A stretch of 64,000 bases of DNA from Micromonospora cathayae (GTDB taxonomy: Bacteria > Actinomycetota > Actinomycetes > Mycobacteriales > Micromonosporaceae): positions 4,369,001 through 4,433,000 of the forward strand of contig NZ_CP118615.1 in NCBI RefSeq assembly GCF_028993575.1, given 5' to 3'. Shown here piece by piece: positions 531 through 28,033 of the stretch. The notes under the pieces were generated by a model. It was not told where the DNA came from. It saw only the letters and a program-made list of their open reading frames with translations, and ran no database searches. Each line of letters begins with the position of its first letter. Position 1 is the first letter of the stretch. A program made the translations under genes and the position numbers.

Positions 531-1826
531 ATGACCTGGCACCGACGGGCCGCGACGGCGATCGCGGCCCTGGCCCTGTTCACCTCCTATCTGCTGGTCG
601 CCGGCACGGCACAGGCCGCGCCCGGTGACAATCTCGCCTGGACGGCCACCGCCACGGCCTCCTACACCTCGTCGTGGGAGAGCGTGACGGCGGTCAACGA
701 CGGGATCGACCCGCCCCGCTCGAACGACACCACCAACCCCCGGTGGGGCACCTGGCCGCAGACCGGCACCCACTGGGTCGAGCTGACCTGGCCCACCGCC
801 CAGACCATCCGGGCGGTGGACGCCTACTTCTTCGACGACCAGGGGGGAGTCCGCCTACCGTCCACCTGGCGGGTGCAGTCCTGGTCCGGTAGCGCCTTCG
901 CCGACGTCCCGGGCGCCAGCGGCTACCCGGTGGCCGCCGACCGGTACAACCGGGTGACGTTCACCGCCGTCACCACCACCCGCCTGCGGGTGCAGTTGAC
1001 CTCCAACGGCACCGCCTCGGTCGGGCTGCTGGAGGTCAAGGCGCACACCGACCCGCCCACCACGAACCCGCCGCCGACCAGCGGGTGGAACCCGCCGGCC
1101 AACCTGGTGCAGCCGCTGGGCGAGGTGTGGCAGCACGTGGAGCAGACGTACAACAACGGCAACCTGTACGGGTTCCGCAACTACGGCTGGGACCAGGTGA
1201 TGGCCAACCGGGGTTACCTGAACTTCTGTGTCCGATGGGACTCGTCGGCGTCGGTGACCGCGGCGCAGCGGGACCAGATCCACGCCGCGCTGGCCCGGCA
1301 GTACAAGAAGTGGTTCGACACCCTGGCCGGGCACAACGCGTGGCCGTACACCGAGGTGCCGGTGCGGGTCGTCGGGTGGGCGGTCCGGGACCGGGCCCAG
1401 TTGCAGTGGTCGGACACCTCCGTGGACATCTACGTGGGCGACATCCGGGAGAACGCGCCGCAGTGCTCCGAGCCGTGCGGGCGGTTCTTCAACCAGAACG
1501 GGCAGTACCCGAACTGTCCCGGCGGGGTCGCCCGGCACTACGACCAGTCGCTGTGGCTGACCGACGGCTTCGCCGGCGGCGCGGGTGGTGACTGGGGCCA
1601 GCGGGTGGGCCGCGAGTACTTCATGAACAACATCAACGCCGCCAACATGCACATCCTGCTGCACGAGATGGGCCACACCTTCGGCCTCGACGACTTCTAC
1701 GACTGGACCCCCACCGGCGTCGGCGGGTTCCTGATGAAGGCCGGCAGCGCCAGCCAGATCACCGAGTTCGACACCTGGATGTTCCGCGACTGGTGGCGGC
1801 ACCTGAAGAGCCGCTACGGCTACTGA
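531..1826 (+). CDS. Secreted metzincin-like zinc protease with N-terminal discoidin (F5/8C) module
   Basis: The protein has 431 residues. A signal peptide of about 32 residues ends in TAQA. A discoidin-like F5/8 type C module follows (about residues 33-170), then a Pro/Thr linker and a protease domain. The zinc motif HEMGHTFGLDD places H378, E379, H382 and D388 in a HExxHxxGxxD signature, as in snapalysin-type M7 and related metzincins; a methionine follows downstream in FLMKAG. Snapalysins are much smaller and lack the carbohydrate module. The start is fixed by AAAGGAGAGAGG just upstream. The discoidin module is almost the same as the last module of the glycosidase at 3360-6647, so protease and glycosidases probably bind the same material outside the cell. 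The exact peptidase family is uncertain. Confidence 0.8.
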   Translation: MTWHRRAATAIAALALFTSYLLVAGTAQAAPGDNLAWTATATASYTSSWESVTAVNDGIDPPRSNDTTNPRWGTWPQTGTHWVELTWPTAQTIRAVDAYFFDDQGGVRLPSTWRVQSWSGSAFADVPGASGYPVAADRYNRVTFTAVTTTRLRVQLTSNGTASVGLLEVKAHTDPPTTNPPPTSGWNPPANLVQPLGEVWQHVEQTYNNGNLYGFRNYGWDQVMANRGYLNFCVRWDSSASVTAAQRDQIHAALARQYKKWFDTLAGHNAWPYTEVPVRVVGWAVRDRAQLQWSDTSVDIYVGDIRENAPQCSEPCGRFFNQNGQYPNCPGGVARHYDQSLWLTDGFAGGAGGDWGQRVGREYFMNNINAANMHILLHEMGHTFGLDDFYDWTPTGVGGFLMKAGSASQITEFDTWMFRDWWRHLKSRYGY

Positions 1827-1923
1827 CCACCGCCGGGGCCGTCGGCCGGCTCACCACCGGCCGGCGGCCCGCCGGTCCCGCGACACCGGTGCCCGTCCCC
1901 CTCCCACCCCGACAGGAGACACC

Positions 1924-3363
1924 GTGCGACGACGTCCCCTCCTCCGCGGCCTGGCCGCCGGCTGCGCGGCGGTGCTCGCCGCGAGCCTGGCGCCCGTGCC
2001 ACCCGCCTCCGCCGCCAACCCCGTCATCACCACCGTCTACACCGCCGACCCCGCCCCCCTCGTGGTCGGCAACACGATGTACGTCTACGCCGGCCGGGAC
2101 GAGGCCCCCACCGGCGGCACCAACTTCGTCATGCGCGAGTGGCACGTGCTGTCGACCACCGACGCGGCGAACTGGACCCACCACGGCGCGCGGGCCACCA
2201 TCGGCACCTTCCCGTGGGCCGGGGCGGACGCCTGGGCCAGCGAGGTGGAGTACCGCAACGGCAGGTACTACTGGTACACCTCGGTCAACGGCAACGGTCC
2301 CGGCTGGATGAACATCGGCGTCGCCGTCGCCGACAGCCCGCTCGGCCCGTTCACCGACGCCAAGGGTGGCCCGCTGATCAGCGACAGCACCCCGAACTCC
2401 TCGCCGCTGAACATTGATCCGACGGTCTTCGTCGACGACGACGGTCAGGCGTACCTCTACTGGGGCGGCTACTGGGGACCCCGGGCGGTCCGGCTGGCCG
2501 CCAACATGATCGACACGGTCGGTCCGGTGACCACCCCGCAGGGACTCAGCAACTTCTGGGAAGCGCCGTTCATGTTCAAACGCAACGGCCTCTACTACAT
2601 GATCTACGCGGCGAACGACACCCAGGGCTGCGTCACCTCGTCCAGCTACGCCTGCCAGCGGTACGCCACCGCGACCAACCCGATGGGCCCGTGGACCCAC
2701 CGGGGCGTGGTGCTCGGTCAGGTCTCCTCGACCACCAACCACGCCGGCGTGGCGCAGCTCAACGGCCAGTGGTACATGGTCTACCACAACGCCGACGCCC
2801 CCGGCGGCGGCAACTTCCGCCGGTCGGTCGCCGTCGACCGGATGTACTTCAACGCCGACGGCAGCATCGTGCCGGTGGTGCAGACCCGCACCGGTCCGCC
2901 ACCCAACCCCGGCGGCGGCCAACCACCGGCCGGCACCAACCTGGCGACGTCGGCCACCGCCAGCACCTCGTACGTGTCCCCCTGGGAGAACCTGGCCGCG
3001 GTCAACGACGGCGCGCAGCCGGCCAGCTCCGCCGACCGCGGCAACCCGGTCTACGGCAACTGGCCCGAGCAGGGCACCCAGTGGATCGAGTACCGGTGGC
3101 CCACCGCGCAGACCATCGACCGCACCGCCACCTACTGGTTCGACGACGACCAGGGCATCGACCTGCCCGCCTCCTGCCGGGTGCAGTACTGGAACGGCAG
3201 CGCCTACGTCGACGTGCCCGGCCAGTCGGCCTGCGGGGTCGCCGGGAACAGCTACAACGTCACCACGTTCGGCCCGGTGACCACCTCCCGGCTGCGGCTG
3301 TCCATCACCGCGCGGACCGGCTCCTCCACCGGGGTCCTCGAGTGGATGGCGTTGCAGCCATGA
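1924..3363 (+). CDS. Secreted GH43 family glycosidase with C-terminal discoidin module
   Basis: The 479-residue protein starts at GTG 1924 behind CAGGAGAC. It has a signal peptide ending near PASA (residue 30). A five-bladed GH43-type domain spans about residues 33-325, with the expected acidic residues visible: D42 in ADPAP (general base), D165 in NIDPT (pKa modulator) and E213 in FWEAP (general acid). A discoidin-like module occupies about 335-479. GH43 members act mostly on alpha-L-arabinofuranosides, xylosides or galactans; substrate cannot be read from sequence alone. The stop overlaps the next ATG by ATGA, so the two are translationally coupled. Confidence 0.85.
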   Translation: MRRRPLLRGLAAGCAAVLAASLAPVPPASAANPVITTVYTADPAPLVVGNTMYVYAGRDEAPTGGTNFVMREWHVLSTTDAANWTHHGARATIGTFPWAGADAWASEVEYRNGRYYWYTSVNGNGPGWMNIGVAVADSPLGPFTDAKGGPLISDSTPNSSPLNIDPTVFVDDDGQAYLYWGGYWGPRAVRLAANMIDTVGPVTTPQGLSNFWEAPFMFKRNGLYYMIYAANDTQGCVTSSSYACQRYATATNPMGPWTHRGVVLGQVSSTTNHAGVAQLNGQWYMVYHNADAPGGGNFRRSVAVDRMYFNADGSIVPVVQTRTGPPPNPGGGQPPAGTNLATSATASTSYVSPWENLAAVNDGAQPASSADRGNPVYGNWPEQGTQWIEYRWPTAQTIDRTATYWFDDDQGIDLPASCRVQYWNGSAYVDVPGQSACGVAGNSYNVTTFGPVTTSRLRLSITARTGSSTGVLEWMALQP

Positions 3364-6300
3364 ACCGGATCCCACGGCTGCGGCCGGCCCTGGCCGCGTT
3401 CGTCACCACCACCCTGCTGGCCGGCACCCTCGCCGTCACCACCGGCGGCCCGGCGCACGCCGCGCAGACCATCGGCTACCCCACCTTCTCCGGGCCGGCC
3501 GTGCCGGCCCCACCGGTCGGCTACTCCACCGGCAACACCATGCAGGCCATCTACGACGCCGAGCGCGGCGGCACCGACTTCTGGCTGGACCGGCTGCTGG
3601 CCCGGCCGGGCAACGACCCCGCCGGCCCCTGGCTGATGACCCGGGGCCGGGGCCTGTTCATGTACACCCACGACCCGGCGGTGATCGGCTTCGGCGGCAA
3701 CACCGCCTACTGGGACAACATCTCCAGCCAGCACGCGTACGCCGTCACCGTCGGCACGGGCACGCTGACCGAGCAGGTGGCCCAGCGCTGGCAGGCGCCC
3801 AGCCACTGGCGCAGCATCCACACCGGCGGGAACCTGCGGGTGGCCGTCACGAAGTTCATCACCGCGCAGAACGTGGCGGTGACCAACCTGACCGTCACCA
3901 ACACCGGCACCACCGGCAGCACCGTCGCCCTGCGGGTCACCTCGCCGTACGCCACCGGCGGCAGTGGCAGCGAGCTGACCGGCAGCCGGCAGGTGAAGAA
4001 CGGCCTGACCACCATCCGACCGCGGCTGTCCGGGGACGGGTTCACCGTCAGCGGCGGCGGCCTGAGCCGCTCGGTCACCCTGGCCGCCGGCCAGAGCGTC
4101 ACCACGAAGGTGCAGCTGGGCGTCGTCACCGACGAGATCCCCGAGTCGGCCACCGAGTACGCCAGCTACCGTGACGCCACCCCGGCGGACGCCTTCGCCA
4201 CCCACGTGCGGGCGTACCACCGCTGGTGGGCCGAGAACGTGCCCTACCTCGACGTGCCCGACCCGGCCATCAAGAAGAACATCTACTACCGCTGGTGGCT
4301 GATGCGCTTCAACCACCTGGACGTCGACATCCCCGGCCAGGACTTCCAGTTCCCCACCTCGATCGAGGGGGTGACCGGGTACAACAACGCCATCGTGCTC
4401 ACCCAGCCGATGCACGTCGACGACCTGAAGTACCTGCGCGACCCGGTCTACTCGTACGGGCCGTGGCTGTCGGTCGGGCAGTCGTCGGCCAACGGCCGGT
4501 ACATGGACAACCCCGGTGACCCGGAGAACTGGTCCAACAGCTACACCCAGTACCTCTCCGAGGCGGCCTGGCGGGCGTACCAGCTGCACGGCGGGCAGCC
4601 GGCGATGCTGCGCAACCTCGCCCGCTACGCCGAGAGCGACGTCAAGGGCCAGCTCGCCACCTACGACACCGACGGCAACGGGGTGATCGAGTACGACTGG
4701 GGGGCGATGACCGGCAACGACGCCGACGCGGTGTCGTTCGACTGGCGGGCCGGCAGGCTGGACCGCGCCGAAGGGGCGTACGTCTACAGCAACGCCCTGG
4801 CCGCCGCGCAGGCGTACGCGGTGTTGGGCGACACGGCCAAGGCCGACGAGCTGCGGGCCCTGGCGAACCGGGTCCGCGACGGCATCGTCGGCGTGCTGTG
4901 GAACCCGAGCCGGCGGCTGCTGGAGCACCGGCACGTCGCCACCGACACCCACGTACCGTGGAAGGAGATCAACAACTACTACCCGTACGCCGTCGGGCTG
5001 ATGCCGAACACCGCCACCTACCGCGAGGCGCTGCGGCTGTTCGACGACCCGGCCGAGTACCCGATCTTCCCCTTCTACACCGCCAACCAGCGGGACAAGG
5101 CCGCCGCTGCCGCCGCCGGCCACCCCGGCAGCAACAACTTCTCCACCATCAACTCGACGGTCCAGTTCCGGCTCTACTCGTCGGTGCTGCGCAACTACCC
5201 GAACCAGTGGATGACCGCCGAGCACTACAAGAAGCTGCTCTACTGGAACACCTGGGCGCAGTACGTCGACGGCAACACCCAGTGGCCGGACGCCAACGAG
5301 TTCTGGTCCAACTGGAACGGCTCGTCGATCACCTACCGGTCCTGGATCCACCACAACATCCTCGGCAGCAGTAACTGGACGGTGATCGAGGACGTCGCCG
5401 GCCTGCGGCCACGCACCGACAACACCATCGAGCTGCACCCGATCGACATCGGCTGGTCCCACTTCGCGGTCAACAACCTGCGCTACCGCAACGCCGACCT
5501 GAGCGTGGTCTGGGACGACCCGGCGGACGGGGTCACCCGGTACCCGGGCGTCCCGCAGGGCTACTCGATCTATCTGAACGGCAACCGGGTCGCCACCGTG
5601 GACCGGCTCACCCAGGTCCGCTACGACCCGGCCACCGGCACGGTCACCCTGCCCGCCGGCGGCACCACCACGTTCAGCGCCGCCTTCGCCGGCCTGCAAC
5701 TGCCACAGCAGGTCGGCCACACCAGCGCCCGGATGGTGGACATGTTCGCCAAGGCCGGGGTCGACCTGACCTCCACCACGCCGAACCTGGCCCAGGGCGC
5801 GACGACCTCGGCGTCGTACACCGCCGCCGGCACCGCCACCGGCGCGGCGGTCGACGGGTTCCCCACCAACGCGCCGATCTGGGGCAGCGCCGGCTCGCCG
5901 AACGCCACCGACTGGTACGAGGTCGACCTCGGCCAGAACCGGACCGTCGACGACGCCTGGGTCCACTTCCGGGACGACCGGGCCGGCAACCGCTACCGGG
6001 CACCGGCGTCGTACACCGTGCAGTACTGGAACGGCACCGCCTGGGCGGCCGTCGCGAACCAGGTGAGAACGCCGGCGACGCCGCGGGCGAACCACAACCG
6101 GGTCCGCTTCACCCCGGTCACCGCCCGACGCCTGCGGGTGCAGGTGACCCACGCGTCGGGCTTCCGTACCGGCCTGACCGAGGTCAAGCTGTACGGCCGG
6201 GGCGGCGCACCGCCGCCGTCGCCGGGGAACCTGGCCGGTGCGGCGAGCCCCTCGGCGTCGTACACCTCGCCCTGGGAGACGGTGGCCGCGCTCAACGACG

Positions 6301-6647
6301 GCGTCGATCCGCCGTCGTCGAACGACACCACCAATCCCCGCTGGGGCACCTGGCCGGAGACCGGCCCGCAGTGGGCGGAGCTGACCTGGCCGACGGCCCA
6401 GACGCTGCGCTCGGCCGAGGTGTACTTCTTCGACGACACCGGTGGCGTGCGGCTACCGTCGTCCTGGCGGTTGCAGTACTGGACCGGTACGTCCTACGTC
6501 GACGTGCCGGGGGCCAGCGGCTATCCCACCCTGCCGCACCGGTACAACCGGGTCACCTTCCCGGCGGTGAGCACCTCTCGGCTGCGGGTGGCCCTGGAAC
6601 ACGGCACGAGTTCGGTCGGCCTGTTGGAGATCAGGGCGACCGGCTGA
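3360..6647 (+). CDS. Large secreted (alpha/alpha)6 glycoside hydrolase with two discoidin modules
   Basis: The 1095-residue protein starts at the ATG overlapping the previous stop. A signal peptide ends near AHA (residue 33). Residues 35-790 resemble six-hairpin enzymes of the GH63 / mannosylglycerate-hydrolase-like (MGH1-like) type, rich in aromatic YRWW and YTANQ motifs. A conserved GNDADAVSF segment sits near residue 452. Two discoidin modules follow at about 807-950 and 955-1095; the last is nearly the same as the module on the protease at 531. The paralogue at 14821 keeps GNDADA, SNNFS and the aromatic motifs. Specificity is unknown; in this setting a beta-L-arabinooligosaccharide-releasing role, like that of GH121 HypBA2, is a guess. 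Confidence 0.75.
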   Translation: MNRIPRLRPALAAFVTTTLLAGTLAVTTGGPAHAAQTIGYPTFSGPAVPAPPVGYSTGNTMQAIYDAERGGTDFWLDRLLARPGNDPAGPWLMTRGRGLFMYTHDPAVIGFGGNTAYWDNISSQHAYAVTVGTGTLTEQVAQRWQAPSHWRSIHTGGNLRVAVTKFITAQNVAVTNLTVTNTGTTGSTVALRVTSPYATGGSGSELTGSRQVKNGLTTIRPRLSGDGFTVSGGGLSRSVTLAAGQSVTTKVQLGVVTDEIPESATEYASYRDATPADAFATHVRAYHRWWAENVPYLDVPDPAIKKNIYYRWWLMRFNHLDVDIPGQDFQFPTSIEGVTGYNNAIVLTQPMHVDDLKYLRDPVYSYGPWLSVGQSSANGRYMDNPGDPENWSNSYTQYLSEAAWRAYQLHGGQPAMLRNLARYAESDVKGQLATYDTDGNGVIEYDWGAMTGNDADAVSFDWRAGRLDRAEGAYVYSNALAAAQAYAVLGDTAKADELRALANRVRDGIVGVLWNPSRRLLEHRHVATDTHVPWKEINNYYPYAVGLMPNTATYREALRLFDDPAEYPIFPFYTANQRDKAAAAAAGHPGSNNFSTINSTVQFRLYSSVLRNYPNQWMTAEHYKKLLYWNTWAQYVDGNTQWPDANEFWSNWNGSSITYRSWIHHNILGSSNWTVIEDVAGLRPRTDNTIELHPIDIGWSHFAVNNLRYRNADLSVVWDDPADGVTRYPGVPQGYSIYLNGNRVATVDRLTQVRYDPATGTVTLPAGGTTTFSAAFAGLQLPQQVGHTSARMVDMFAKAGVDLTSTTPNLAQGATTSASYTAAGTATGAAVDGFPTNAPIWGSAGSPNATDWYEVDLGQNRTVDDAWVHFRDDRAGNRYRAPASYTVQYWNGTAWAAVANQVRTPATPRANHNRVRFTPVTARRLRVQVTHASGFRTGLTEVKLYGRGGAPPPSPGNLAGAASPSASYTSPWETVAALNDGVDPPSSNDTTNPRWGTWPETGPQWAELTWPTAQTLRSAEVYFFDDTGGVRLPSSWRLQYWTGTSYVDVPGASGYPTLPHRYNRVTFPAVSTSRLRVALEHGTSSVGLLEIRATG

Positions 6648-6754: not shown

Positions 6755-6778
6755 ACATCTTGCCGAAACCCTTTTCGG
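6755..6778. promoter_or_regulatory. CCGAAA-N4-TTTCGG operator box before the first LacI gene
   Basis: CCGAAA-CCCT-TTTCGG (6763-6778) is a perfect inverted repeat. The preceding GACATCTT extends it to a 24-base box that differs at one position from the box at 9142-9165 before the ABC importer. This near-identity over 24 bases, beyond the palindrome, argues for a real shared promoter/operator. It lies 60-76 bases before the preferred start of the LacI gene. Confidence 0.7.
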
Positions 6779-6838: not shown

Positions 6839-7951
6839 GTGCACGGTCACCAGGTGTTGGACAGCCCACGGTCGGACAGGTCCGCCCGACGGTCCGGCCG
6901 CGCCATCATGCGCGACGTCGCCGAACTGGCCGGAGTGTCCACCCAGACGGTGTCCCGGGTCGTCAACCAGCACCCGTACGTCAACGACGACACCCGCCGA
7001 CGGGTGCTGATGGCGATGCGGGAACTGGACTACCACCCGAACCCGGCGGCGCGGGCACTGGTCACCCGACGCTCCGGCACGCTGGGCGTGATCGGCTACG
7101 ACAGCGCGCTCTTCGGGCCGATCTCCATGCTGTACGCGATCGAGGACGCGGCCCGCACCGCCGGGTACGTGGTGAGCGTCGCCAGCGTCCGTCACCTGGA
7201 CCGCCGGTCGGTGCTCGACGCGATCGACTGGCTACGCCAACAGTCGGTCGACGGGATCATCGCCATCGCCCCCAAACCGGCGCTGGCCGGCGCGCTGGCC
7301 GAGGCCCCGTCCGGGCTGGCCTGCGTGACCGTGGGCGGCGGCAGCACCGACGCGGTGCCGAGTGCGCGGATCGACAACGCCGAGGGCGCGCGGCTGGCCA
7401 CCCGGCACCTGCTCGACCTGGGGCACGCCACCGTGCACCACGTGGCCGGCCCGGACGACTGGCCGGAGGCGACCGAGCGGATCCGCGGCTGGCGCGAGGC
7501 GTTGCAGGCCGCCGGCCGACCGGTCCCTGCGGTGGTACCCGGTGACTGGAGCGCGCGGTCGGGTTTCGCGCAGGGCGGGCGGCTGTCGGCCGACCCGGGC
7601 GTCACGGCCGTCTTCTGCGCCAGCGACCAACAGGCCCTCGGGGTGCTCCGGGCGCTGCACGAGGCCGGTCGGCGGGTCCCCGAGGACGTCAGCGTGGTGG
7701 GTTTCGACGGCACCCTCGACAGTGCCCAGTTCCTGCCGCCGCTGACCACGGTGCGCCAGGACTTCACCGAACTCGGCCGGGCCAGTCTGGAACTCCTGCT
7801 GGCGCAACTCGACCGGGTCGAGGGCAGCCCGGTGCCGCGGCGGGAGCTGTCCCCGCCCGAGCTGGTGATCCGGGCCAGCACCGCGCCGGCACCCGGCACG
7901 CCCGACGTGGCCGGGACGCCCCGCCTGGCCGGTCGCGCCCGCCCCGCCTGA
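6839..7951 (+). CDS. LacI family transcriptional regulator (first of three)
   Basis: The LacI/GalR HTH MRDVAELAGVSTQTVSRV is followed by a periplasmic-binding-protein-like sensor domain and a low-complexity tail. GTG 6839 is chosen because GCGGGG sits about 8 bases upstream; ATG 6791 and ATG 6908 are also in frame, the last one abutting the HTH with no RBS. The regulator lies directly after the first GH operon and tail to tail with the second LacI gene. Its HTH (STQTVSRVVN) differs from that of LacI 2 and 3 (SVATASKA.NG), so its DNA target may also differ. Effector unknown; an arabinose-containing sugar is likely from context. Confidence 0.85.
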   Translation: MHGHQVLDSPRSDRSARRSGRAIMRDVAELAGVSTQTVSRVVNQHPYVNDDTRRRVLMAMRELDYHPNPAARALVTRRSGTLGVIGYDSALFGPISMLYAIEDAARTAGYVVSVASVRHLDRRSVLDAIDWLRQQSVDGIIAIAPKPALAGALAEAPSGLACVTVGGGSTDAVPSARIDNAEGARLATRHLLDLGHATVHHVAGPDDWPEATERIRGWREALQAAGRPVPAVVPGDWSARSGFAQGGRLSADPGVTAVFCASDQQALGVLRALHEAGRRVPEDVSVVGFDGTLDSAQFLPPLTTVRQDFTELGRASLELLLAQLDRVEGSPVPRRELSPPELVIRASTAPAPGTPDVAGTPRLAGRARPA

Positions 7952-9007: not shown

Positions 9008-9020
9008 CGAAAGCCTTTCG
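9008..9020. promoter_or_regulatory. Operator-like repeat abutting the second LacI start
   Basis: CGAAA-GCC-TTTCG is an inverted repeat directly next to the GTG start at 9007 and overlaps the likely Shine-Dalgarno sequence. A half-site GGTTTCGG follows at 9024-9031. Binding here would block the gene's own translation-initiation region or promoter. Confidence 0.6.
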
Positions 9021-12693: not shown

Positions 12694-12695
12694 GA

Positions 12696-19625: not shown

Positions 19626-22600
19626 GTGAACACCACCGTGGGGCGCGCCGCCGCCCCACCGTCCACCCGGCCGGCGGGCCGCCTCCGCCGGGCGGTCGCC
19701 GCGACCGCCGTCGCCGGCCTCGTCGCCGGTGGCCTGGTCGGGGTCGCCGGCCCGGCGTACGCCGCCGAGCCCCCCTCGAACACCTTCACCAACAGCGTCA
19801 ACCCGATCCTCGGCGACGGCAGCTACTACTCGGCCGACCCGGCACCGGTCGTGGTGCCGGCCGGCGCGCCCGGCAACGACAGCGGCTCCGACCAGCTCTA
19901 CGTCTACACCGGCCACGACCAGGCCGGACCGTCCACCAACGACTTCATCATGAACGAGTGGGGCGCGTTCCGCACCACCGACGTCGAGACGGGGGAGTGG
20001 ACTTACTTCCCGTCGCTGATGCGCCCCGAACAGGTCTTCGCCTGGGCCACCCCCGGCCGGGCGTACGCCGGCCAGGTGGTCCGGGGCGTCGACGGCCGCT
20101 ACTACTGGTACGTCCCGATCCACGAGCGGGACAGCCCGGCCTCCGACAAGTTCGCCATCGGCGTGGCCGTCTCGGACACCCCGACCGGGCCGTGGACCGA
20201 CCACGCCGGCGGGCCGATCATCTCCCAGCGGGTACCCACCGCCAACACCATCCACAACATCGACCCGACCGTCCTGATCGACGGCGAGGCCCCCAACCAG
20301 CGGGTGTACGTCTGGTGGGGTTCGTTCAGCCAGCTCCGCATGCTCGAGTTCCGGCAGGACATGAAGACACCGATCGGCACGCCGCGTACCGTCACCGGAC
20401 TGACCGGCTTCTTCGAGGGCGCCTGGGCGTTCAAGCGCAACGGCACCTACTACCTGGCGTACGCCGGCAACAACGCCGGCCCGACCTCGGCGTGCACCCC
20501 GGCGAACTACCACGCCTGCCTCGCCTACGGCACGGCATCGTCGCCGGAGGGCCCGTGGACGTACCGGGGGACCTTCCTGCGGCCGGTCTCCTCCACCACC
20601 AGCCACCCCGGAATGCTGGAGTTCGACGGCCGGTGGTACCTGGCGTACCACACCGCCGACGCGGTGGGCGGCGGCCACTTCCGCCGCTCGGTGGCGATCG
20701 ACCCCGTCGAGTGGGACGACACCCAGACCCCGCCCCGGATCAAGCTGGTCACGCCGACGCCGGTACGGGGACCGGACCTCACCCCCCGACCGAACATCGC
20801 CCAGGCGGCCCGGGTCACCGTCTCCAACGACCCGGTACCCACCCAGTACTGGGTGAAGGCGCTCAACGACGAGATCGTCCGGTCGAACCCGCTGCCGCCG
20901 GACATGTGGGGCACCTGGACCGGCAGCAACCCGCCGCAGCAGTGGGTGCAGTACACCTGGGACCAGCCGATGCGGATCTCCGGTTCGCAGATCGAGTTCT
21001 GGAACGACCAGCCCCAGGGCACCGGCACCGGCGTCGCCGCCCCGGCCCGCTGGCGCATCCAGTACTGGAACACCGCCGCCGGCCAGTGGGCCGACGTGCC
21101 CGACCCGAGCGGCTACCCGACCGGCACCCAGGGCTTCCAGCACACCACCTTCGACCCGGTCACCACCACCCAGGTCCGCGCCGTGTTCGACGCCTCCACC
21201 AACGGCAGCACCTACTCGGCCGTCGCCGTCGAGGAGTGGAAGGTGCTCGCCGCCCAGCCGGACACCGCCGTCACCGCCCCGGCCGTCACGGTCGAGGTGG
21301 GGGAGACCGACCTGCCGGACACCGTGGCGGTGACGTTCGGCACCGAGACCCTGCGGGTGCCGGTCCACTGGGACCCGGTGCCGGCGGACCAGGTCGCCGC
21401 GCCCGGCACGTTCACCGTCGCCGGCACCGTGCTCGGCTACGCCGCCGGACGGGTCACCGCGCAGGTCACCGTGATCTCCCCGGACGACACCGAGGGCGAC
21501 ACGACCGCGCCGACGCTCACCCTCACCCCCGCCGGCAGCGCCGGCAGTGCCGGCTGGTTCCGGTCCGCGGTCCGGGTGCGGGCCGCCGGGGTGGACGACC
21601 GGGGCGGACGCCTGAGCATCACCACCCGGGTCGACGACGCCGAGCCGGTCGTCACACCCGACGTCCGGTCGGTCGACGTCACCGTCACCGGCGACGGCCG
21701 GCACACCGTCACCGCGACCGCGACCGACCGCGCCGGCAACGTCTCGGCCCCGGCGGACCTCGCGGTACGCGTCGACGCCACCGCCCCGGTCAGCGCGGCC
21801 ACCGTGTCCGCCACCACCCGGGCGGTCACGGTGACCGCCAGCGACGCGACCTCCGGCGTCGCCCGGATCGAGTACGCCGTCGGCACCGGCGCGTGGACCA
21901 CCTACACCGGTCCCGTCCCGGCACCCGACGCGAACCGGCACACCGTGTCGTTCCGGGCGCTCGACGCCGCCGGCAACGTGGAGACCGCCCGGACCGTCAC
22001 CGTCCCGGCGGACCTGTCCGGGCCGCTGACCGGCAACATCGGGCCCATCGGCACCCCCACCGCCTCCTACACGGCCGGTTGGAACAGCGTCGGCGCGCTC
22101 AACGACAACGCCGACCCGGCCAGCCCCAGCCAGGCGCAGCTGTGGGGCACCTGGTCCGGTACCCGCCCGGCCACCCAGTGGATCCAGTACGACTGGGCCC
22201 GCCCGGTCCGGATCACCGGCACCGAGCTGAAGTTCTGGCGGGACGCCAACCAGGGCACCGGCGAGGGCGTCGCCGCGCCCGACGGGTGGGTGCTGCAGTA
22301 CTGGGACGAGACCGGCGCGGTGTGGCGGGACGTGACCGGGGCGTCCGGCTACGGCACCAGCACCACCGCGTTCAACACGGTCACCTTCGACCCGGTCAGC
22401 ACGCCCCGGGTCCGGGCCACCATCCGGGCCAACGGCAACGGCACCAGCTACTCGGCGGTCGCGGTCACCGAGTGGCGGGTCCACGCCGACGACCCCGGCG
22501 TCCAGGCGCAACTGCCCGTCACGGTCACCGTGCAGACCCGCTGCCTGGCCGGCCGGGCGTACGTGGCGGTGCAGGCCCGCAACGACCACGACACCCCGGT

Positions 22601-22820
22601 GGACCTCACCCTGACCACCGGGTACGGCGAACGCACGTTCGCGAAGGTGGCCCCGGGCGCGAACGCGTACCAGTCGTTCGCCACCCGGACCGCCTCGGTA
22701 CCGGCCGGGCAGGTGACGGTCCGCGCCACCGGGACCCTCGCCGGCACGGACGTGACCAGCACGGCCACCGCCGCCCAACCCGGCGTCGACTGCGCCGGTG
22801 ACCCCCGGCAAGCCCGGTAA
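19626..22820 (+). CDS. Secreted multimodular GH43 enzyme with discoidin, Ig-like and shared C-terminal modules
   Basis: The 1064-residue protein starts at GTG 19626 behind GAGGAG. The signal peptide ends near AYAAEP (residue 47). GH43 domain residues are D71 (ADPAP), D213 (NIDPT) and E264 (FFEGAW), matching the smaller GH43 at 1924. Following modules are discoidin (about 389-542), an Ig-like domain (545-620), a repeated Ig/OmpL47-like segment with DRAGNVS and DAAGNVE motifs (628-795), a second discoidin (802-955) and the C-terminal shared module (about 960-1064). Most likely an exo- or endo-acting arabinofuranosidase-type enzyme; the exact bond is unknown. Confidence 0.83.
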   Translation: MNTTVGRAAAPPSTRPAGRLRRAVAATAVAGLVAGGLVGVAGPAYAAEPPSNTFTNSVNPILGDGSYYSADPAPVVVPAGAPGNDSGSDQLYVYTGHDQAGPSTNDFIMNEWGAFRTTDVETGEWTYFPSLMRPEQVFAWATPGRAYAGQVVRGVDGRYYWYVPIHERDSPASDKFAIGVAVSDTPTGPWTDHAGGPIISQRVPTANTIHNIDPTVLIDGEAPNQRVYVWWGSFSQLRMLEFRQDMKTPIGTPRTVTGLTGFFEGAWAFKRNGTYYLAYAGNNAGPTSACTPANYHACLAYGTASSPEGPWTYRGTFLRPVSSTTSHPGMLEFDGRWYLAYHTADAVGGGHFRRSVAIDPVEWDDTQTPPRIKLVTPTPVRGPDLTPRPNIAQAARVTVSNDPVPTQYWVKALNDEIVRSNPLPPDMWGTWTGSNPPQQWVQYTWDQPMRISGSQIEFWNDQPQGTGTGVAAPARWRIQYWNTAAGQWADVPDPSGYPTGTQGFQHTTFDPVTTTQVRAVFDASTNGSTYSAVAVEEWKVLAAQPDTAVTAPAVTVEVGETDLPDTVAVTFGTETLRVPVHWDPVPADQVAAPGTFTVAGTVLGYAAGRVTAQVTVISPDDTEGDTTAPTLTLTPAGSAGSAGWFRSAVRVRAAGVDDRGGRLSITTRVDDAEPVVTPDVRSVDVTVTGDGRHTVTATATDRAGNVSAPADLAVRVDATAPVSAATVSATTRAVTVTASDATSGVARIEYAVGTGAWTTYTGPVPAPDANRHTVSFRALDAAGNVETARTVTVPADLSGPLTGNIGPIGTPTASYTAGWNSVGALNDNADPASPSQAQLWGTWSGTRPATQWIQYDWARPVRITGTELKFWRDANQGTGEGVAAPDGWVLQYWDETGAVWRDVTGASGYGTSTTAFNTVTFDPVSTPRVRATIRANGNGTSYSAVAVTEWRVHADDPGVQAQLPVTVTVQTRCLAGRAYVAVQARNDHDTPVDLTLTTGYGERTFAKVAPGANAYQSFATRTASVPAGQVTVRATGTLAGTDVTSTATAAQPGVDCAGDPRQAR

Positions 22821-22847: not shown

Positions 22848-23477
22848 ATGAAGACATGGAATCGTAGGCGGCTGCTCGCGGCGGGTGCCGCCGGTGCCCT
22901 GGTGGTCGCGGCGGCGGTGCAGTCGCCGGCGCTCGCCGAGCCCGGTGCCGACGCCGACGTGACGGTGACCGTGGAGATCGAGGAGATCGACGAGCCGGGC
23001 GTGCTGGCCCTGTCGGTCGCCGGGAACTCGGTCGCGCTGTCCGAGGACGGCTCCACCCTGCTGGTACGCCAGTTCGTCGGCACCCTGCCGACGGTGACGG
23101 TCACCGACACCCGTACCGCGGACGAGGTGCCCGCCGACGCCGGCTGGGCGGTGCTGGGCAGCGCCACCGACTTCGTCGGCGCGGCCGGGCAGGCCCCGAT
23201 CAGCGCCGGGCACCTCGGCTGGAAGCCGCGGCTGCTCGACGGCGGCGACACCGGGCTGATCAGCGAGGGTGAGGAGGTGGTGACCGTCCTCGACGAGCCC
23301 ACCCAGCCGGGCAACAACGTCGGTCTGGTCGACCAGGAACTGCTGGTGTCGACGTTCGACTCCGGGGCGGTCGCCGGCGACGCGTACACCGTCGACGCCG
23401 ACCTGTTCCTGCGGACCCCGGCGGACGTCGCCGCCGGCTCGTACACCTCGACCCTGACCCTGTCGCTGTTCGAGTGA
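22848..23477 (+). CDS. Secreted WxL-like surface protein
   Basis: This 209-residue protein has an N-terminal signal with NRRRLLAAG (possibly Tat-compatible) and cleavage near ALA-EP (residue 30). The mature part is all-beta-like and acidic. It shows a GWAVLGSATDF segment (W100), then HLGWKPRL (W125), and ends in AGSYTSTLTLSLFE, the layout of WxL-type domains: paired W motifs and a terminal GxYxSTLTxSL. WxL domains bind peptidoglycan non-covalently in Firmicutes. The next gene encodes a DUF916-type protein, the usual WxL partner. The first motif is W-x-x-L, so this is a divergent member. It is flanked by enzymes that share a C-terminal module. Confidence 0.72.
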   Translation: MKTWNRRRLLAAGAAGALVVAAAVQSPALAEPGADADVTVTVEIEEIDEPGVLALSVAGNSVALSEDGSTLLVRQFVGTLPTVTVTDTRTADEVPADAGWAVLGSATDFVGAAGQAPISAGHLGWKPRLLDGGDTGLISEGEEVVTVLDEPTQPGNNVGLVDQELLVSTFDSGAVAGDAYTVDADLFLRTPADVAAGSYTSTLTLSLFE

Positions 23478-23482
23478 CGGCC

Positions 23483-23541: not shown

Positions 23542-24603
23542 ATGATCCGAACCGGGTCGTGGGTCTCCCCGTCGAGGCTGCTGCCCCGGCTGCTGGCCGG
23601 GCTGACCGTGCTGGTCGTCGTGGGGTCGCCCGCGCCGGCCGCCGGGACGACCGCACCGACCGCACCGACGGTCACCTGGGCGGTGCAACCGGCCGACCCG
23701 TCCGGCCCGGACGGGCGTCGGTGGATCGAGGCCACCCTCGACCCGGGGCAGGTGACGACCGAACACCTGGCGGTCCGCAACTTCAGCGACACACCAGTGG
23801 TGTTCGCGTTGAAGGCGGCCGACGGCTACCTCACCGACCGGGGCCGGTTCACCATGCTGTCGTCCGACCGGGAGTCGGTCGACGGCGGCACCTGGATCCG
23901 GGTACGGGAGCGGGTGCGGGTCGCGGCCCGGTCGACCACGGTGGTGCCGTTCACCATCAGCGCACCCGCCGACGCCACCCCCGGGGACCACCCGGCCGGT
24001 ATCGCGGCGACGCTGACCAGCAGCGGAGGCACCGTCGCGGTGGAGAGCCGGGTCGGCTTCCGGGTCATGCTGCGGGCCAGCGGCACGGTCACGGCGGCCC
24101 TGGCGGTCACCGACCTCACCACCGAGTACCGGCGGTCGTGGAATCCCTTCTCGGCCGGCACCGTCCTGGTCACGTACACCGGGACGAACCGGGGGAACGT
24201 GGCGGTGACCGGCCGCGGCCGGGTGACGACCGGGCACCTGTTCGGTCTGACCGACCGGGGCACCGCCGCCCCGGCGGCGGAACTGCTGCCGGGCGGCCGC
24301 CGGCAGGTGACGACCCGGCTCGCCGGCGTCTGGGGGATCGGGCCGCTGCGGACGACGGTCGACGTGACCCCCGCCGTCCGGGGCGGCGACCCGACCGGTG
24401 CGGTGATCCGGCCGACCACGGCCGCCGTCACGCTCTGGGTGCTGCCCTGGCCGCAGCTCGCCCTCGCGGCGCTGGTCGCCGGGCTGCTCCTGGCGTACCG
24501 GATCACCGCCCGGAAGCGCCGCCGACGACTGGCCCGGCTGCTCGCCCGCGCCCGGGACGAGGGGCGCGCCGAGGCCCGGACGTCCGCTTCCGCCGCCGGC
24601 TGA
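23542..24603 (+). CDS. DUF916-type WxL-interacting membrane protein
   Basis: The 353-residue protein has a signal peptide ending near PAPAAG, two Ig-like beta domains and a single C-terminal transmembrane helix (about residues 305-322) followed by a very basic cytoplasmic tail. The layout and motifs (VRNFSDTPVVFALKAADG, ADATPGDHPAGIAATL) fit the DUF916 / WxL-protein peptidoglycan-domain family. In Firmicutes these proteins are encoded with WxL proteins in cell-surface complex clusters linked to plant polysaccharide use. GGAAGG precedes the ATG. Here it could hold a WxL-based complex at the membrane; that role is inferred. Confidence 0.8.
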   Translation: MIRTGSWVSPSRLLPRLLAGLTVLVVVGSPAPAAGTTAPTAPTVTWAVQPADPSGPDGRRWIEATLDPGQVTTEHLAVRNFSDTPVVFALKAADGYLTDRGRFTMLSSDRESVDGGTWIRVRERVRVAARSTTVVPFTISAPADATPGDHPAGIAATLTSSGGTVAVESRVGFRVMLRASGTVTAALAVTDLTTEYRRSWNPFSAGTVLVTYTGTNRGNVAVTGRGRVTTGHLFGLTDRGTAAPAAELLPGGRRQVTTRLAGVWGIGPLRTTVDVTPAVRGGDPTGAVIRPTTAAVTLWVLPWPQLALAALVAGLLLAYRITARKRRRRLARLLARARDEGRAEARTSASAAG

Positions 24604-24655: not shown

Positions 24656-27600
24656 GTGGTCCACTCCCACCCGCACCAGGTCAGCCGACGGCAGGTCCTC
24701 CAGGCGTCCGCGATCGGCGCCGCCACGGTGGTCACCGCCGGCGCGCTGCCGGCCAGCGCCGCGACCGCCGCGCCCACCGCCGGCCCGACCGCCCCCGTCG
24801 TCGGTGCCGCCGATCCGGGCCCCGGCGGCACCGCCCCGGTACGACCGTTCCGGCTGCGGGACGTGACGCTCGGCGACGGCCTGTTCCAGGAGAAGCGCGA
24901 CCGCATGAAGGACTACCTGCGGCAGCTCGACGAACGGCGCTTCCTGGTGTTGTTCAACAACCAGGCCGGCCGGCCGAACCCGCCCGGGGTGACCGTACCC
25001 GGGGGCTGGGAGGACGGCGGGCTGCTCAGCGGCCACTGGGCCGGCCACGTCATGACGGCCCTGGCGCAGGGGTACGCCGACCTCGGCGAGCCGGTCTTCA
25101 AGCGCAAACTCGACTGGATGGTCGACGAACTCGCCGCCTGCCAGGCCGCGATCACCGCCCGGATCGGCCAGGACGACGGCGGTGGCGAGGACCCGGCCGA
25201 ACCGCCCGTCGGCCGGGTGCCGGGCCGCTTCGGAAGCGGACTGCGGTTCAACGGCCCGAGCGCGGCACAGTACGCGACCCTGCCCCAGGAGGCGATCAGC
25301 CAGCTCACCGAGTTCACCATCGCCGCCTGGGTGAACCTCGCCACCACCCAGAGCTGGACCCGGTTGTTCGACTTCGGTCAGAACAGCACCGTCAACATGT
25401 TCCTGACCCCGCGCGCCGGGGTGACCGGCAACGTGCCGAGGTTCGCCATCACCGTCGCCGGCAGCGGCGGGGAACAGCGCATCGACGGCACCGTGGCGCT
25501 ACCGACCAACCAGTGGGTGCACCTGGCCGTCACCCTGACCCAGCGCACCGGCACCCTCTACGTCAACGGTCAGCCGGCCGGCCAGAACCCGGCCGTCACC
25601 CTCACCCCGGCCAGCCTCGGCAACCCGGGCAACCGGTGGATCGGACGGTCCCAGTACGGCGACCCGTACCTGGACGCCACCGTCGACGAGTTCCACATCT
25701 TCGACCGGGCGTTGAGCGGGCCGGAGGTCCGGTCGCTGCTCGACTCGGCGGCCGGCACCACCGGCGGCGGGTCGATCGCCTGGTACCGGTTCGAGGAACC
25801 GGACGGTACGACGATCGTCGACGCCTCGCCCAACGGCCGGGACGGCGGCATCGTGGTCGGCGCCAGCGGCGGCGGCCCGCTCTGGACCCCGACCCATCCC
25901 GGCTACCTGGGGGCCATCCCGGAGGACGCGGTGCTGCGCCTCGGCCCACCCCGGTGGGCCGTCTACGGCAGCAACGCCGACACCAACACCTGGGCGCCGT
26001 GGTACACCCAGCACAAGATCATGCGAGGGCTGCTCGACGCGTACTACCACACCGACAACCCGACGGCCCTCGACGTGGTCGTCAAGATGGCGAACTGGGC
26101 CCACCTCGCGCTGACCGTCGGCGACAAGAACCATCCCGACTACGCCGGCCCGATCACCCGGGACGACCTGAACTACATGTGGGACCTCTACATCGCCGGC
26201 GAGACCGGGGGCGCGAACGAGGTGTTCCCCGAGATCTACGCGCTCACCGGTGACCGCCGGCACCTGGACACCGCGAAATGCTTCGACAACCGCGAATCCC
26301 TCTTCGGGGCCTGCGTCGAGAACCGTGACATCCTGGTGGTGACCCCGCAGAACAACCCCGGCCGCCGCCGCCCCGACCGGCTGCACGCCAACTCGCACGT
26401 GCCGCAGTTCGTCGGCTACCTGCGGATCTACGAGCACAGCGGGGAGGACGACTACCTGGCCGCCGCCCGGAACTTCTTCGGCATGGTCGTCCCGCACCGG
26501 ATGTACGCCAACGGCGGCACCGGCGGCAACTACCCCGGCTCCAACAACAACATCGAGCTGTTCCAGAACCGGGGCAACATCGCGAACTCGATCGCCCAGG
26601 GCGGCGCCGAGACCTGCACCACGTACAACCTGATGAAGCTGGCCCGCAACCTGTTCCTGCACGAGCACGACCCGGCGTACCTGGACTACTACGAGCGGGC
26701 CCTGCTCAACCAGATCCTCGGCTCCCGCGCCGACACCACCGACGTCAGCAACCCGCAGGTCACCTACTTCCAGCCGTTGACCCCGGGTGCCACCCGCAGC
26801 TACGGCAACATCGGCACCTGCTGCGGCGGCACCGGCGTGGAGAACCACACCAAGTACCAGGAGACGATCTACCTCAGGTCGGCCGACGGCGGGACGCTCT
26901 GGGTCAACCTGTACGCGGCCTCCACCCTGACCTGGGCCGAGCGGGGTTTCACCGTCGTCCAGGAGACCACCTACCCCCGGACGGACCACACCAGGCTCAC
27001 CGTGCACGGCAGCGGCCCGCTCGACCTCAAGCTGCGGGTACCCGGCTGGGTGCGCAGGGGCTTCCACGTCACCGTCAATGGCACCGCGCAGGACGTCGAG
27101 GCCCGGCCGGGCAGCTACCTGACGCTGGGCCGGACCTGGACGCCGGGCGACACCGTCGAGATCCGGATGCCGTTCAGCATCCGGATCGAGCGGGCCCCGG
27201 ACCGCCCGGACACCCAGTCGGTCTTCTGGGGGCCGCTCCTCCTGCAGATCCTCGGCAACCCGGGCGTCGGCAACTACCGCGAACTGTCCCTGTACCGCCA
27301 CCTGCGGCGGGACGGGGACTACTCCCGCTCGGCGATCACCCCGGCCGGTACCACGGCCGCCGGCGACGTCCTGTTCACCACGCACGGCTTCACCCTGCGT
27401 CCGTACCACGTCGGCGACACGCAGGCCGCCTCCTCGTACTTCCGGCGGGTCGAACCGACGGTCGTGTTCGGCTCCGTCGACACCGGGGTACCCAACCGGA
27501 AACGCGACGACGGCCTGCCCCGCTACGACGTCCCGGTGACCGGCGTCCCCACCCCCGGCACCGACGGGCCGACCTTCCTCGACCTGGTGTGGGACCAGGC

Positions 27601-28033
27601 CCCCTTCGCCACACACGACGCGTTCGTGGCGACGGTGACCCGGGTCGCCGAGGCGTTCGTCGCGGCCGGCGTGTTCACCCCGGCGGAGCAGGACCGCGTC
27701 GTCGACCACGCCACCCGGGCGGGGACGGAACTCGAACCGGACCGTCGATGGGCCGTCGAGGTCCGGGCCCGCACCCAGTACACCGGCGACAACGTCCACC
27801 TCGCCGTCACTGCCCGTAACGACGACACCGTGCCGCTCACCATCGAGCTGATCACCGCCTACGGCTCGCGGACGGTGCCCGACGTCCTGCCGGGGAAGGC
27901 CGCCTACCAGGCGTTCAACACCCGCACCTCGGCGGTACCGGCCGGCACCGCCACCGTCCGGATCACCGGAACGGTCGACGGCGCCACCGTGACCACCCAG
28001 CTCGAGACCGGGTACGCCGCGGCCAGCCGCTAG
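24656..28033 (+). CDS. Tat-exported GH146-like beta-L-arabinofuranosidase with inserted LamG domain
   Basis: The protein has about 1125 residues from GTG 24656. The N-terminus carries SRRQVLQ before a hydrophobic stretch, a Tat signal. The catalytic region belongs to the GH127/GH146 (DUF1680) superfamily, with E652-C654 (AETCTT) and C722-C723 (GTCCGG) as the zinc/nucleophile set. It is interrupted after about residue 170 (ACQAAI) by a LamG/concanavalin-like domain (about 188-410) and resumes at HPGYLGAIPE. Two C-terminal beta domains and the about 90-residue shared module (1030-1125) follow. It should remove beta-L-arabinofuranosyl residues outside the cell; family choice between GH146 and GH127 is by overall similarity only. 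Confidence 0.85.
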   Translation: MVHSHPHQVSRRQVLQASAIGAATVVTAGALPASAATAAPTAGPTAPVVGAADPGPGGTAPVRPFRLRDVTLGDGLFQEKRDRMKDYLRQLDERRFLVLFNNQAGRPNPPGVTVPGGWEDGGLLSGHWAGHVMTALAQGYADLGEPVFKRKLDWMVDELAACQAAITARIGQDDGGGEDPAEPPVGRVPGRFGSGLRFNGPSAAQYATLPQEAISQLTEFTIAAWVNLATTQSWTRLFDFGQNSTVNMFLTPRAGVTGNVPRFAITVAGSGGEQRIDGTVALPTNQWVHLAVTLTQRTGTLYVNGQPAGQNPAVTLTPASLGNPGNRWIGRSQYGDPYLDATVDEFHIFDRALSGPEVRSLLDSAAGTTGGGSIAWYRFEEPDGTTIVDASPNGRDGGIVVGASGGGPLWTPTHPGYLGAIPEDAVLRLGPPRWAVYGSNADTNTWAPWYTQHKIMRGLLDAYYHTDNPTALDVVVKMANWAHLALTVGDKNHPDYAGPITRDDLNYMWDLYIAGETGGANEVFPEIYALTGDRRHLDTAKCFDNRESLFGACVENRDILVVTPQNNPGRRRPDRLHANSHVPQFVGYLRIYEHSGEDDYLAAARNFFGMVVPHRMYANGGTGGNYPGSNNNIELFQNRGNIANSIAQGGAETCTTYNLMKLARNLFLHEHDPAYLDYYERALLNQILGSRADTTDVSNPQVTYFQPLTPGATRSYGNIGTCCGGTGVENHTKYQETIYLRSADGGTLWVNLYAASTLTWAERGFTVVQETTYPRTDHTRLTVHGSGPLDLKLRVPGWVRRGFHVTVNGTAQDVEARPGSYLTLGRTWTPGDTVEIRMPFSIRIERAPDRPDTQSVFWGPLLLQILGNPGVGNYRELSLYRHLRRDGDYSRSAITPAGTTAAGDVLFTTHGFTLRPYHVGDTQAASSYFRRVEPTVVFGSVDTGVPNRKRDDGLPRYDVPVTGVPTPGTDGPTFLDLVWDQAPFATHDAFVATVTRVAEAFVAAGVFTPAEQDRVVDHATRAGTELEPDRRWAVEVRARTQYTGDNVHLAVTARNDDTVPLTIELITAYGSRTVPDVLPGKAAYQAFNTRTSAVPAGTATVRITGTVDGATVTTQLETGYAAASR

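What the first reader, a model, noticed from the sequence alone, without database searches (positions are those of the whole stretch)
531..28033. Possible complete locus for plant hydroxyproline-rich glycoproteins, joining a protease and beta-L-arabinosidases through one shared binding module
The window holds GH127, GH146-like and GH43 enzymes, an oligosaccharide importer and a secreted metzincin-like protease. The protease and the (alpha/alpha)6 glycosidase at 3360 carry almost the same discoidin module (shared NDTTNPRWGTWP and VPGASGYP). Known: GH127 HypBA1 and GH121 HypBA2 of Bifidobacterium longum act on extensin-type Hyp-linked beta-L-arabinosides. Inference: this locus pairs deglycosylation with peptide cleavage of the same cell-wall glycoprotein.
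Basis: partly seen in the sequence, partly recalled or inferred. Interest (0 to 1): 0.78.

Follow-up and report, generated by a model that had tools for sequence, protein, structure and literature searches.

The report
Plant glycoprotein-eating locus with protease
A soil bacterium of the Micromonospora group carries a gene cluster that looks built to strip the arabinose sugars from plant cell-wall glycoproteins such as extensin and perhaps to cut the exposed protein too, with one kind of sticky domain shared by the sugar-cutting and the protein-cutting enzymes.

Summary
The glycosidase at 3360 is itself a GH121 beta-L-arabinobiosidase homologue, and a second GH121 lies at 14821. With GH127, GH146, two GH43s, an ABC importer and LacI regulators this is an enlarged HypAA/HypBA1/HypBA2-type system for Hyp-linked arabino-oligosaccharides. 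The protease (531-1826) has a discoidin module 69% identical to a GH121 module; all 7 hits to that module in the genome (E<=1e-6) lie here.
Links of the protease to the locus: (1) GH121/127/43/146 genes nearby in 36 of 80 related loci, 8 in one conserved order; (2) a LacI-type site, CGAAA-N3/4-TTTCG, four times in 64 kb, all in this locus, and upstream of the protease in 24 of 74 related loci (in the window itself the site is shared with a divergent gene); (3) in relatives the same module is fused to other HExxH proteins in the locus, one of the Svx family, whose Pectobacterium member is reported to cleave extensin.
Against: 20 of 34 GH121-bearing congeners lack the protease; many relatives carry CBM2 or no module; in an even class sample 0 of 10 loci read had these glycosidases nearby; 11 of the 24 loci with the site lack them too. 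Activity and substrate are untested.

The parts
81..93 (.). LacI-type operator-like site CGAAAAGGTTTCG, about 440 bp upstream of the protease start and about 75 bp upstream of a divergent gene that starts near position 5; it may serve either. A one-mismatch copy lies at 226
   Evidence: exact match; N3 pattern expected 0.01 times per window
531..1826 (+). secreted zinc-protease-like protein: signal peptide (inspection), discoidin/DUF7402 module (about 609-1025), Pro/Thr linker, HExxHxxGLDD catalytic domain (about 1083-1823)
1924..3363 (+). secreted GH43 (PF04616 150.6 bits) with C-terminal discoidin module (below Pfam cut-off)
3360..6647 (+). secreted GH121 (HypBA2-like) with two C-terminal discoidin modules; the second is the one shared with the protease
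6764..6777 (.). operator-like site upstream of the first LacI gene
6908..7951 (+). LacI-family regulator (start inferred)
7976..9061 (-). LacI-family regulator LacI2, often next to the protease in relatives (true start possibly 8983)
9008..9020 (.). operator-like site at the LacI2 start
9152..9165 (.). operator-like site between LacI2 and the importer genes
9422..10720 (+). ABC importer solute-binding protein
10853..11770 (+). ABC importer permease A
11776..12693 (+). ABC importer permease B (frame of ORF 9586-12693; not scanned against Pfam, called from its sequence and its relation to the permeases of relatives)
12690..14678 (+). GH127, no signal peptide seen (cytoplasmic by inspection), HypBA1 active-site residues conserved
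14821..19557 (+). second secreted GH121 with discoidin and Big_4 domains and a C-terminal domain shared with GH43b and GH146
19626..22820 (+). secreted GH43 (GH43b) with Big and discoidin modules
22848..23477 (+). small secreted protein, possibly WxL-like by inspection only
   Evidence: no family match
23542..24603 (+). membrane protein with weak WxL-interacting-protein domain match (below cut-off)
24656..28033 (+). GH146-like enzyme with twin-arginine signal (by inspection) and inserted LamG domain
28257..29378 (+). third LacI-family regulator, found with the locus in several congeners

Best explanation
The locus is a saprophytic system for plant hydroxyproline-rich glycoproteins (extensin type). 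Outside the cell, GH43 removes the terminal alpha-linked arabinose, GH121 releases beta-1,2-arabinobiose, and GH146 removes the last arabinose from hydroxyproline. The disaccharide is imported by the ABC transporter and split inside by GH127. The protease, held on the same substrate by the same kind of discoidin module and probably under the same LacI-type control, cuts the glycoprotein backbone, either between arabinosylated blocks or after they are stripped. Shown by computation: gene content, conserved catalytic residues of GH121 and GH127, module kinship and its confinement to this locus, conserved neighbourhood in many relatives, operator-like sites. Inferred: substrate, ligand of the module, proteolytic activity, exact GH43/GH146 specificities, order of events, which LacI binds.
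For: GH121 with Glu383/Asp515/Glu713 equivalents conserved (alignment; residues from PMC7263609, passages), a second GH121, GH127 with HypBA1 residues conserved, GH146 and GH43. All 7 module hits of the genome at E<=1e-6 lie in this locus (41 of 41 candidates scored); 32 of 32 module hits at E<=1e-20 in the genus lie within 9.5 kb of a GH121 (24 candidates scored per genome). Protease near these GHs in 36 of 80 named loci, 8 with the order LacI2-GH127-SBP-permeases-protease-GH146-GH43-GH121. In 160 congeners the protease is in 10 of 12 genomes with the first GH121 type (one copy interrupted) and 7 of 148 without (kinship not corrected). Operator-like motif exact 4 times in the window, all in the locus, and within 500 bp upstream of the protease in 24 of 74 loci against 0.011 hits expected per 520 bp. 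The same module is on a HEYGH-type protein in 6 loci and on an Svx-family protein (NF040510, 234.8 bits, under its cut-off of 625) next to the protease in Nonomuraea solani. The only DUF6055 gene (E<=1e-10) in 160 congeners sits 0.3 kb from the protease. Pectobacterium Svx cleaves extensin (PMC13164431: abstract, introduction, first part of discussion).
Against: 20 of 34 GH121-positive congeners lack the protease. In the even class sample only 3 of 11 protease genomes have a GH121 anywhere, and none of the 10 loci read out of the 12 other hits shows these GH genes in its 20-kb stretch. The 80 named loci are the best 80 of 308, a biased sample. Of 18 protease copies in the genus (the window's included) 12 carry CBM2, a cellulose-type module, 2 discoidin, 4 are undetermined (CBM2 confirmed by Pfam for one); in 25 of 80 named loci no module was detected. 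The module is not a fresh copy from the neighbouring GH121. The operator-like site was found upstream of the protease only in Micromonosporaceae (24 of 42; 0 of 32 others), and 11 of those 24 loci have none of the GH genes in the flank. In the window the exact site at 81 lies closer to a divergent gene than to the protease. The catalytic domain matches no Pfam or NCBIfam family above its cut-off and no solved fold with confidence. The GH127's best NCBIfam match is aceric acid hydrolase (332.6 bits, cut-off 950), and two other GH127 structures score above HypBA1. No activity or substrate was tested.
Confidence: 0.63

Rival explanations
1. The protease is a general plant-cell-wall protease, tethered to whatever cell-wall polymer its swappable module binds (cellulose through CBM2, another glycan through discoidin). 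It travels with the locus because both are useful in plant litter, but it is not specific for hydroxyproline-rich glycoproteins.
For: CBM2 in 22 of 80 loci and no module detected in 25 of 80; CBM2-type proteases in Herpetosiphon, Phytohabitans and others with none of these GH genes in the flank; 0 of 10 class-sample loci read out beside these GHs; the operator-like site also at 11 loci without them.
Against: Linkage to GH121-type loci in many genera, module confined to the locus in this genome, pairing with Svx-family and HEYGH-type proteins carrying the same module.
Confidence: 0.27
2. The protease acts on the bacterium's own secreted enzymes (maturation, shedding or turnover of the multi-domain glycosidases), not on a plant protein.
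For: The neighbours are large multi-domain secreted enzymes; nothing tested here excludes processing.
Against: The protease has its own substrate-type binding module, and a CBM2 in relatives; 20 of 34 GH121-positive congeners manage without it.
Confidence: 0.06
3. The locus is for arabinan or rhamnogalacturonan side chains, and the protease is incidental.
For: The GH146 is closest to 5opj (that this is BT0349 is recalled), and BT0349 acts on arabinan-derived products (PMC10850190, passages); GH43a has weak arabinanase family matches; GH127's best NCBIfam match is aceric acid hydrolase, far under its cut-off; pectate lyases lie at 55-61 kb.
Against: Two GH121s, the first with conserved catalytic residues; characterised GH121 enzymes act on Ara3-Hyp (PMC7263609, PMC6085000, passages).
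Confidence: 0.04

Closest known systems
Bifidobacterium longum HypAA-HypBA2-HypBA1 cluster with ABC importer (BLLJ_0208 to BLLJ_0213)
   Same: GH43, GH121, GH127, solute-binding protein and permeases; conserved catalytic residues of GH121 and GH127
   Different: two GH121s, two GH43s, a GH146 in the same locus, three LacI genes, discoidin modules shared with a protease, and the protease itself; the passages read of PMC7263609 describe three enzymes and a transporter, no protease
Xanthomonas euvesicatoria xehypBA1/BA2/AA region
   Same: Hyp-arabinoside enzymes with a putative prolyl oligopeptidase next to xehypAA (PMC6085000, passages)
   Different: different peptidase kind; no shared binding module or importer described in the passages read
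Svx peptidase of Pectobacterium atrosepticum
   Same: secreted zinc peptidase whose non-catalytic domain is needed to cut extensin and proposed to recognise its arabinan chains (PMC13164431, abstract and part of discussion); Svx-family homologues lie beside relatives of our protease
   Different: our protease is not Svx: no DUF6055 or NF040510 match, HExxHxxGLDD motif, discoidin instead of the acyltransferase-like domain
F5/8 type C / CBM32-like modules
   Same: the module folds like CBM32 and related discoidin domains (Foldseek) and the protein matches PF24135 above its cut-off (29.9 against 27 bits)
   Different: ligand unknown; a subfamily found only at GH121 loci in the genus at E<=1e-20

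Membership tests
GH121 (HypBA2) | similarity along the catalytic region | tested here: met
   862 and 562 bits to NF041578 (the family cut-off 3200 for the whole 1709-position model is not reached); 6m5a E 2.7e-193
GH121 (HypBA2) | Glu383, Asp515, Glu713 equivalents | tested here: met
   all three aligned and identical in 3360-6647 (offset of 31 worked out by hand); in 14821-19557 by inspection of the same motifs only
GH127 (HypBA1) | Zn site Glu338/Cys340/Cys417/Cys418 and Glu322 (numbers recalled), and His142, Tyr145, His194, Arg273 | tested here: met
   all identical in the printed alignment to 3wkw (counted by hand); the last four residues are named in PMC10850190
Aceric acid hydrolase (NF049879, GH127) | score above cut-off | tested here: not met
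   332.6 bits against 950
GH146 | closer to GH146 than to GH127 structures | tested here: met
   5opj 225 bits against 3wkw 38 bits (that 5opj is a GH146 is recalled)
HypBA-type Hyp-arabinoside utilisation cluster | GH43 + GH121 + GH127 + ABC importer together | tested here: met
   that a GH43 here is a HypAA-type enzyme was not tested
HypBA-type Hyp-arabinoside utilisation cluster | activity on Ara3/4-Hyp | not testable with these tools
   needs enzyme assay
Metzincin peptidases | HExxHxxGxxH/D motif and Met-turn | tested here: met
   H194 E195 G197 H198 G201 D203 D204 M218 invariant in 46 sequences; calling M218 the Met-turn is an inference
Metzincin peptidases | metzincin fold | tested here: inconclusive
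   ADAMTS4 at E 0.41, ADAM10 and profragilysin lower; none at E<=0.001; model mean pLDDT 77.9, pTM 0.82
M6 peptidase (TIGR03296) | score above cut-off | tested here: not met
   23.4 bits against 110.8, motif region only
Svx/AvrXca (DUF6055) | family match in the window's genome | tested here: not met
   no PF19527 hit at E<=1e-10 in the own genome

The most novel reading that the evidence does not exclude
Soil actinomycetes carry a dedicated, modular system for dismantling hydroxyproline-rich glycoproteins. A locus-bound discoidin subfamily acts as a common address tag for HRGPs, placed on arabinosidases and on at least three families of HExxH peptidases, including one with no Pfam home. The peptidases are under the same LacI-type control as the sugar importer, so glycan stripping and backbone cleavage form one regulated unit.
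Probability: 0.36. Interest if true: 0.76.

Novelty: new variant of a known kind. Interest (0 to 1): 0.63.

Why it matters
[quoted passage not shown] The sugar-removing enzymes are known, and one pathogen peptidase (Svx) is reported to cut extensin. A conserved saprophyte locus that joins both steps with a shared binding module would say how these proteins may be recycled in soil, give a family of candidate extensin peptidases, and offer a module that can be tested directly as an HRGP probe.

Tried and rejected
Recent intra-locus copying of the module from GH121 to the protease was considered and rejected. The window's protease module is nearer to protease modules of Asanoa hainanensis (78%) and Saccharothrix (75-76%) than to its own GH121 (69%). 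AU tests reject neither one protease-module clade (p 0.125) nor one GH121-module clade (p 0.586) (70 rows kept of 152, the rest dropped as paralogues, long rows, duplicates or surplus outgroup rows). On the catalytic-domain tree (88 rows, SH-aLRT only) the window's protease groups with a CBM2-type one from M. rosaria (support 86), and the discoidin label needs 9 changes, 3 of them forced by starred branches, so the binding module has changed more than once; direction is not known.

Fold assignment by structure failed: the full-length model recovered the discoidin fold among the hits shown, the catalytic model gave no significant match.

A palindrome scan of intergenic regions first suggested other sites (6707, 14706); these were not shared with the protease and were dropped. 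A first operator pattern (GAAACCGTTTC or its variant, up to one mismatch) gave 7 of 75 loci; it was then widened to CGAAA-N3/4-TTTCG after looking at these hits and at the window, so the motif was not named in advance, and protease starts are inferred. The background rate comes from the same loci.

Paper searches for prior description of a protease in a GH121/GH127 locus; the only such statement found in what I read is the Xanthomonas prolyl oligopeptidase remark (PMC6085000). Subscription papers are not held, and all papers but the four cited were seen only as search listings (title and abstract start).
Full report
Setting. The window is G000:C1:4369001-4433000 of a 7.2-Mb single-contig genome. 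The nearest named relatives of the protease are Micromonospora species, so the host is taken as a Micromonospora; the genome itself is unnamed.

Anatomy. Coding frames were chosen by codon composition and domains by Pfam and NCBIfam. From left to right: a secreted protein with a discoidin/DUF7402 module and an HEMGHTFGLDDFYD domain (531-1826); a secreted GH43 with a discoidin module (1924-3363); a secreted GH121 with two discoidin modules (3360-6647); two LacI regulators; a solute-binding protein and two permeases (9422-12693); a GH127 without signal peptide (12690-14678); a second secreted GH121 (14821-19557); a second secreted GH43 (19626-22820); a small secreted protein and a membrane protein with a weak WxL-interacting-protein match (22848-24603); a GH146-like enzyme with a twin-arginine signal (24656-28033); a third LacI. 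Signal peptides were judged by inspection. GH121b, GH43b and GH146 share a C-terminal domain of about 90 residues (46-64% identity).

Catalytic residues. In the alignment of the first GH121 with 6m5a the equivalents of Glu383, Asp515 and Glu713, conserved in GH121 and needed for full activity in HypBA2 (PMC7263609, passages), are conserved. In the GH127 the residues reported to bind substrate in HypBA1 (His142, Tyr145, His194, Arg273; PMC10850190, passages) and the zinc/nucleophile residues (numbers recalled) are conserved, although its best NCBIfam match is aceric acid hydrolase, far below cut-off, and two other GH127 structures score higher than HypBA1. The set GH43 + GH121 + GH127 + importer is that of the Bifidobacterium longum Hyp-arabinoside cluster (PMC7263609). 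GH146 enzymes acting on Araf-beta-Hyp are described for Xanthomonas and B. longum (PMC10850190); whether this GH146 does so is not known.

The shared module. The protease module is 69% identical to the second GH121 module, 53% to the GH43a module and 41% to the first GH121 module. In the whole genome every hit to this module at E<=1e-6 (7 of 7; 41 of 41 candidates scored) lies in the locus. In 160 congeners, 18 genomes have hits at E<=1e-20 (24 candidates scored per genome), and all 32 hits lie within 9.5 kb of a GH121. At that similarity the module is locus-bound.

The protease in other genomes. In the genus it is present in 17 of 160 genomes and GH121 in 34 of 160; 14 have both. For the first GH121 type it is 10 of 12 against 7 of 148 (Fisher p 5e-10, not corrected for kinship; one of the 12 is an interrupted copy); for genomes with only the second GH121 type the association is not significant (p 0.19). 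From the coordinates, 9 of 17 proteases lie within 10 kb of a GH121 and one at 27 kb; three are on another contig than the GH121, one is about 549 kb away, and three genomes have no GH121. A profile scan of named genomes gave 308 relatives; the best 80 loci were examined. By tblastn with the window's proteins, 36 of 80 (34 of 64 with more than 8 kb on both sides) have a GH121, GH127, GH43a or GH146 homologue in the fetched flanks. By N-terminal type, in those 64, this is 15 of 26 for discoidin, 16 of 22 for no module detected, and 3 of 16 for CBM2. Eight loci (Asanoa 2, Lentzea 4, Crossiella 1, Saccharothrix 1) share the order LacI2, GH127, SBP, permeases, protease, GH146, GH43a, GH121a. Against this, in an even sample of the class 11 of 394 genomes have the protease and 22 of 394 a GH121, with 3 shared. 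Of the 12 other hits there, 10 loci were read out (one a fragment), and none has these glycosidases in its 20-kb stretch; five of the ten carry the discoidin module, one CBM2.

Module swapping. Of 18 protease copies in the genus, 12 have CBM2, 2 (the window's and G520) discoidin, and 4 are undetermined, three of them at contig ends (CBM2 confirmed by Pfam for L037, 114 bits). The window's catalytic domain groups with CBM2-type Micromonospora proteases (SH-aLRT 86 and 90), while its module is nearest to the modules of other discoidin-type proteases. Exchange of the binding module while the catalytic domain stayed is the simplest reading; a fresh copy from the adjacent GH121 is not supported.

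Co-regulation. An inverted repeat CGAAA-N3/4-TTTCG occurs four times exactly in 64 kb (shuffle expectation 0.00 and 0.01): at 81, upstream of the protease; at 6764, upstream of LacI1; and at 9008 and 9152, at the LacI2 start and before the importer. The site at 81 is about 440 bp from the protease and about 75 bp from the start of a divergent 1060-residue frame, so in this genome it may serve either or both; a one-mismatch copy lies at 226. Among the 80 loci, 74 have 500 bp upstream of the inferred protease start, and 24 of these have an exact site there (31 hits), against 31 hits in the other 1.43 Mb. All 24 are among the 42 Micromonosporaceae loci; 0 of 32 others has one; 13 of the 24 have the GH genes in the flank and 11 do not. 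The pattern was refined after a first look. In the Lentzea/Asanoa order the protease follows the permeases and may not need its own promoter (inference).

Other peptidase-like proteins with the same module. In Nonomuraea and Streptosporangium loci L154, L159, L160, L163, L165 and L172 the same module is fused to another secreted HEYGH-motif protein in the same locus as the protease. In Nonomuraea solani (L157) it is fused to a DUF6055 protein matching the Svx/AvrXca family (234.8 bits, below the equivalog cut-off of 625; PF19527 446 bits) next to the protease. In Plantactinospora endophytica (L127) an Svx-family gene without a module follows the GH121; pieces of such genes are seen in L131, L148 and L164. 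Svx of Pectobacterium is reported to cut extensin, with a non-catalytic domain required and proposed to recognise its arabinan chains (PMC13164431). This other peptidase family, carrying the same module or sitting in the same neighbourhood, is the best available hint of the substrate; it rests on few loci (6 of the 80).

Peptidase family. The catalytic domain has invariant H194, E195, H198, G201, D203, D204 and M218 in 46 sequences, fits no Pfam or NCBIfam model above cut-off, and gives no confident fold match. It should be called an unclassified, metzincin-like zinc peptidase candidate; activity is not shown.

Verdict. The Hyp-arabinoside reading of the locus is strong (my estimate 0.85). That the protease belongs functionally to it is likely (0.77). 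That it cuts the same glycoprotein is plausible but untested (0.63 for the combined statement). It is a new variant of a known kind of locus, not a new category.

Noticed in passing
22848-24603: A small secreted protein followed by a membrane protein with a weak WxL-interacting-protein match (below cut-off); both found again in several congener loci, possibly a surface-display pair for the enzymes.
   Followed up: partly
14821-28033: GH121b, GH43b and GH146 share a C-terminal domain of about 90 residues (46-64% identity), for which the Pfam scans of these proteins named no clear family at that place; it marks a second module group inside the locus.
   Followed up: partly
L157:2303-4456, L116:3094-5274: Svx-family (DUF6055) proteins beside the protease in soil actinomycetes, with the discoidin module in one and CBM2 in the other, each matching the module on the neighbouring protease.
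   Followed up: yes
L159:12279-14198 and homologues in L154, L160, L163, L165, L171, L172: A HEYGH-motif secreted protein family (He_PIG plus discoidin in the two scanned, L159 and L163; L171 lacks discoidin) with no peptidase family match in Pfam at E<=1 for those two, and a second copy in tandem in some loci.
   Followed up: partly
L007:15823-19005 (minus strand, its start lies near window position 5): A divergent 1060-residue frame upstream of the protease with a partial GH67 C-terminal domain match (37 bits, cut-off 27); it could share the operator-like site at 81.
   Followed up: partly
L051:6996-9434 (genome G061): An interrupted copy of the GH43a-GH121a pair away from the rest of the locus, suggesting decay of this pair in that species.
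   Followed up: no
55669-61517: Three pectate lyase genes on the minus strand, a wider plant-cell-wall region.
   Followed up: no
46689-47975: GH19 chitinase with a CBM5/12 module.
   Followed up: no
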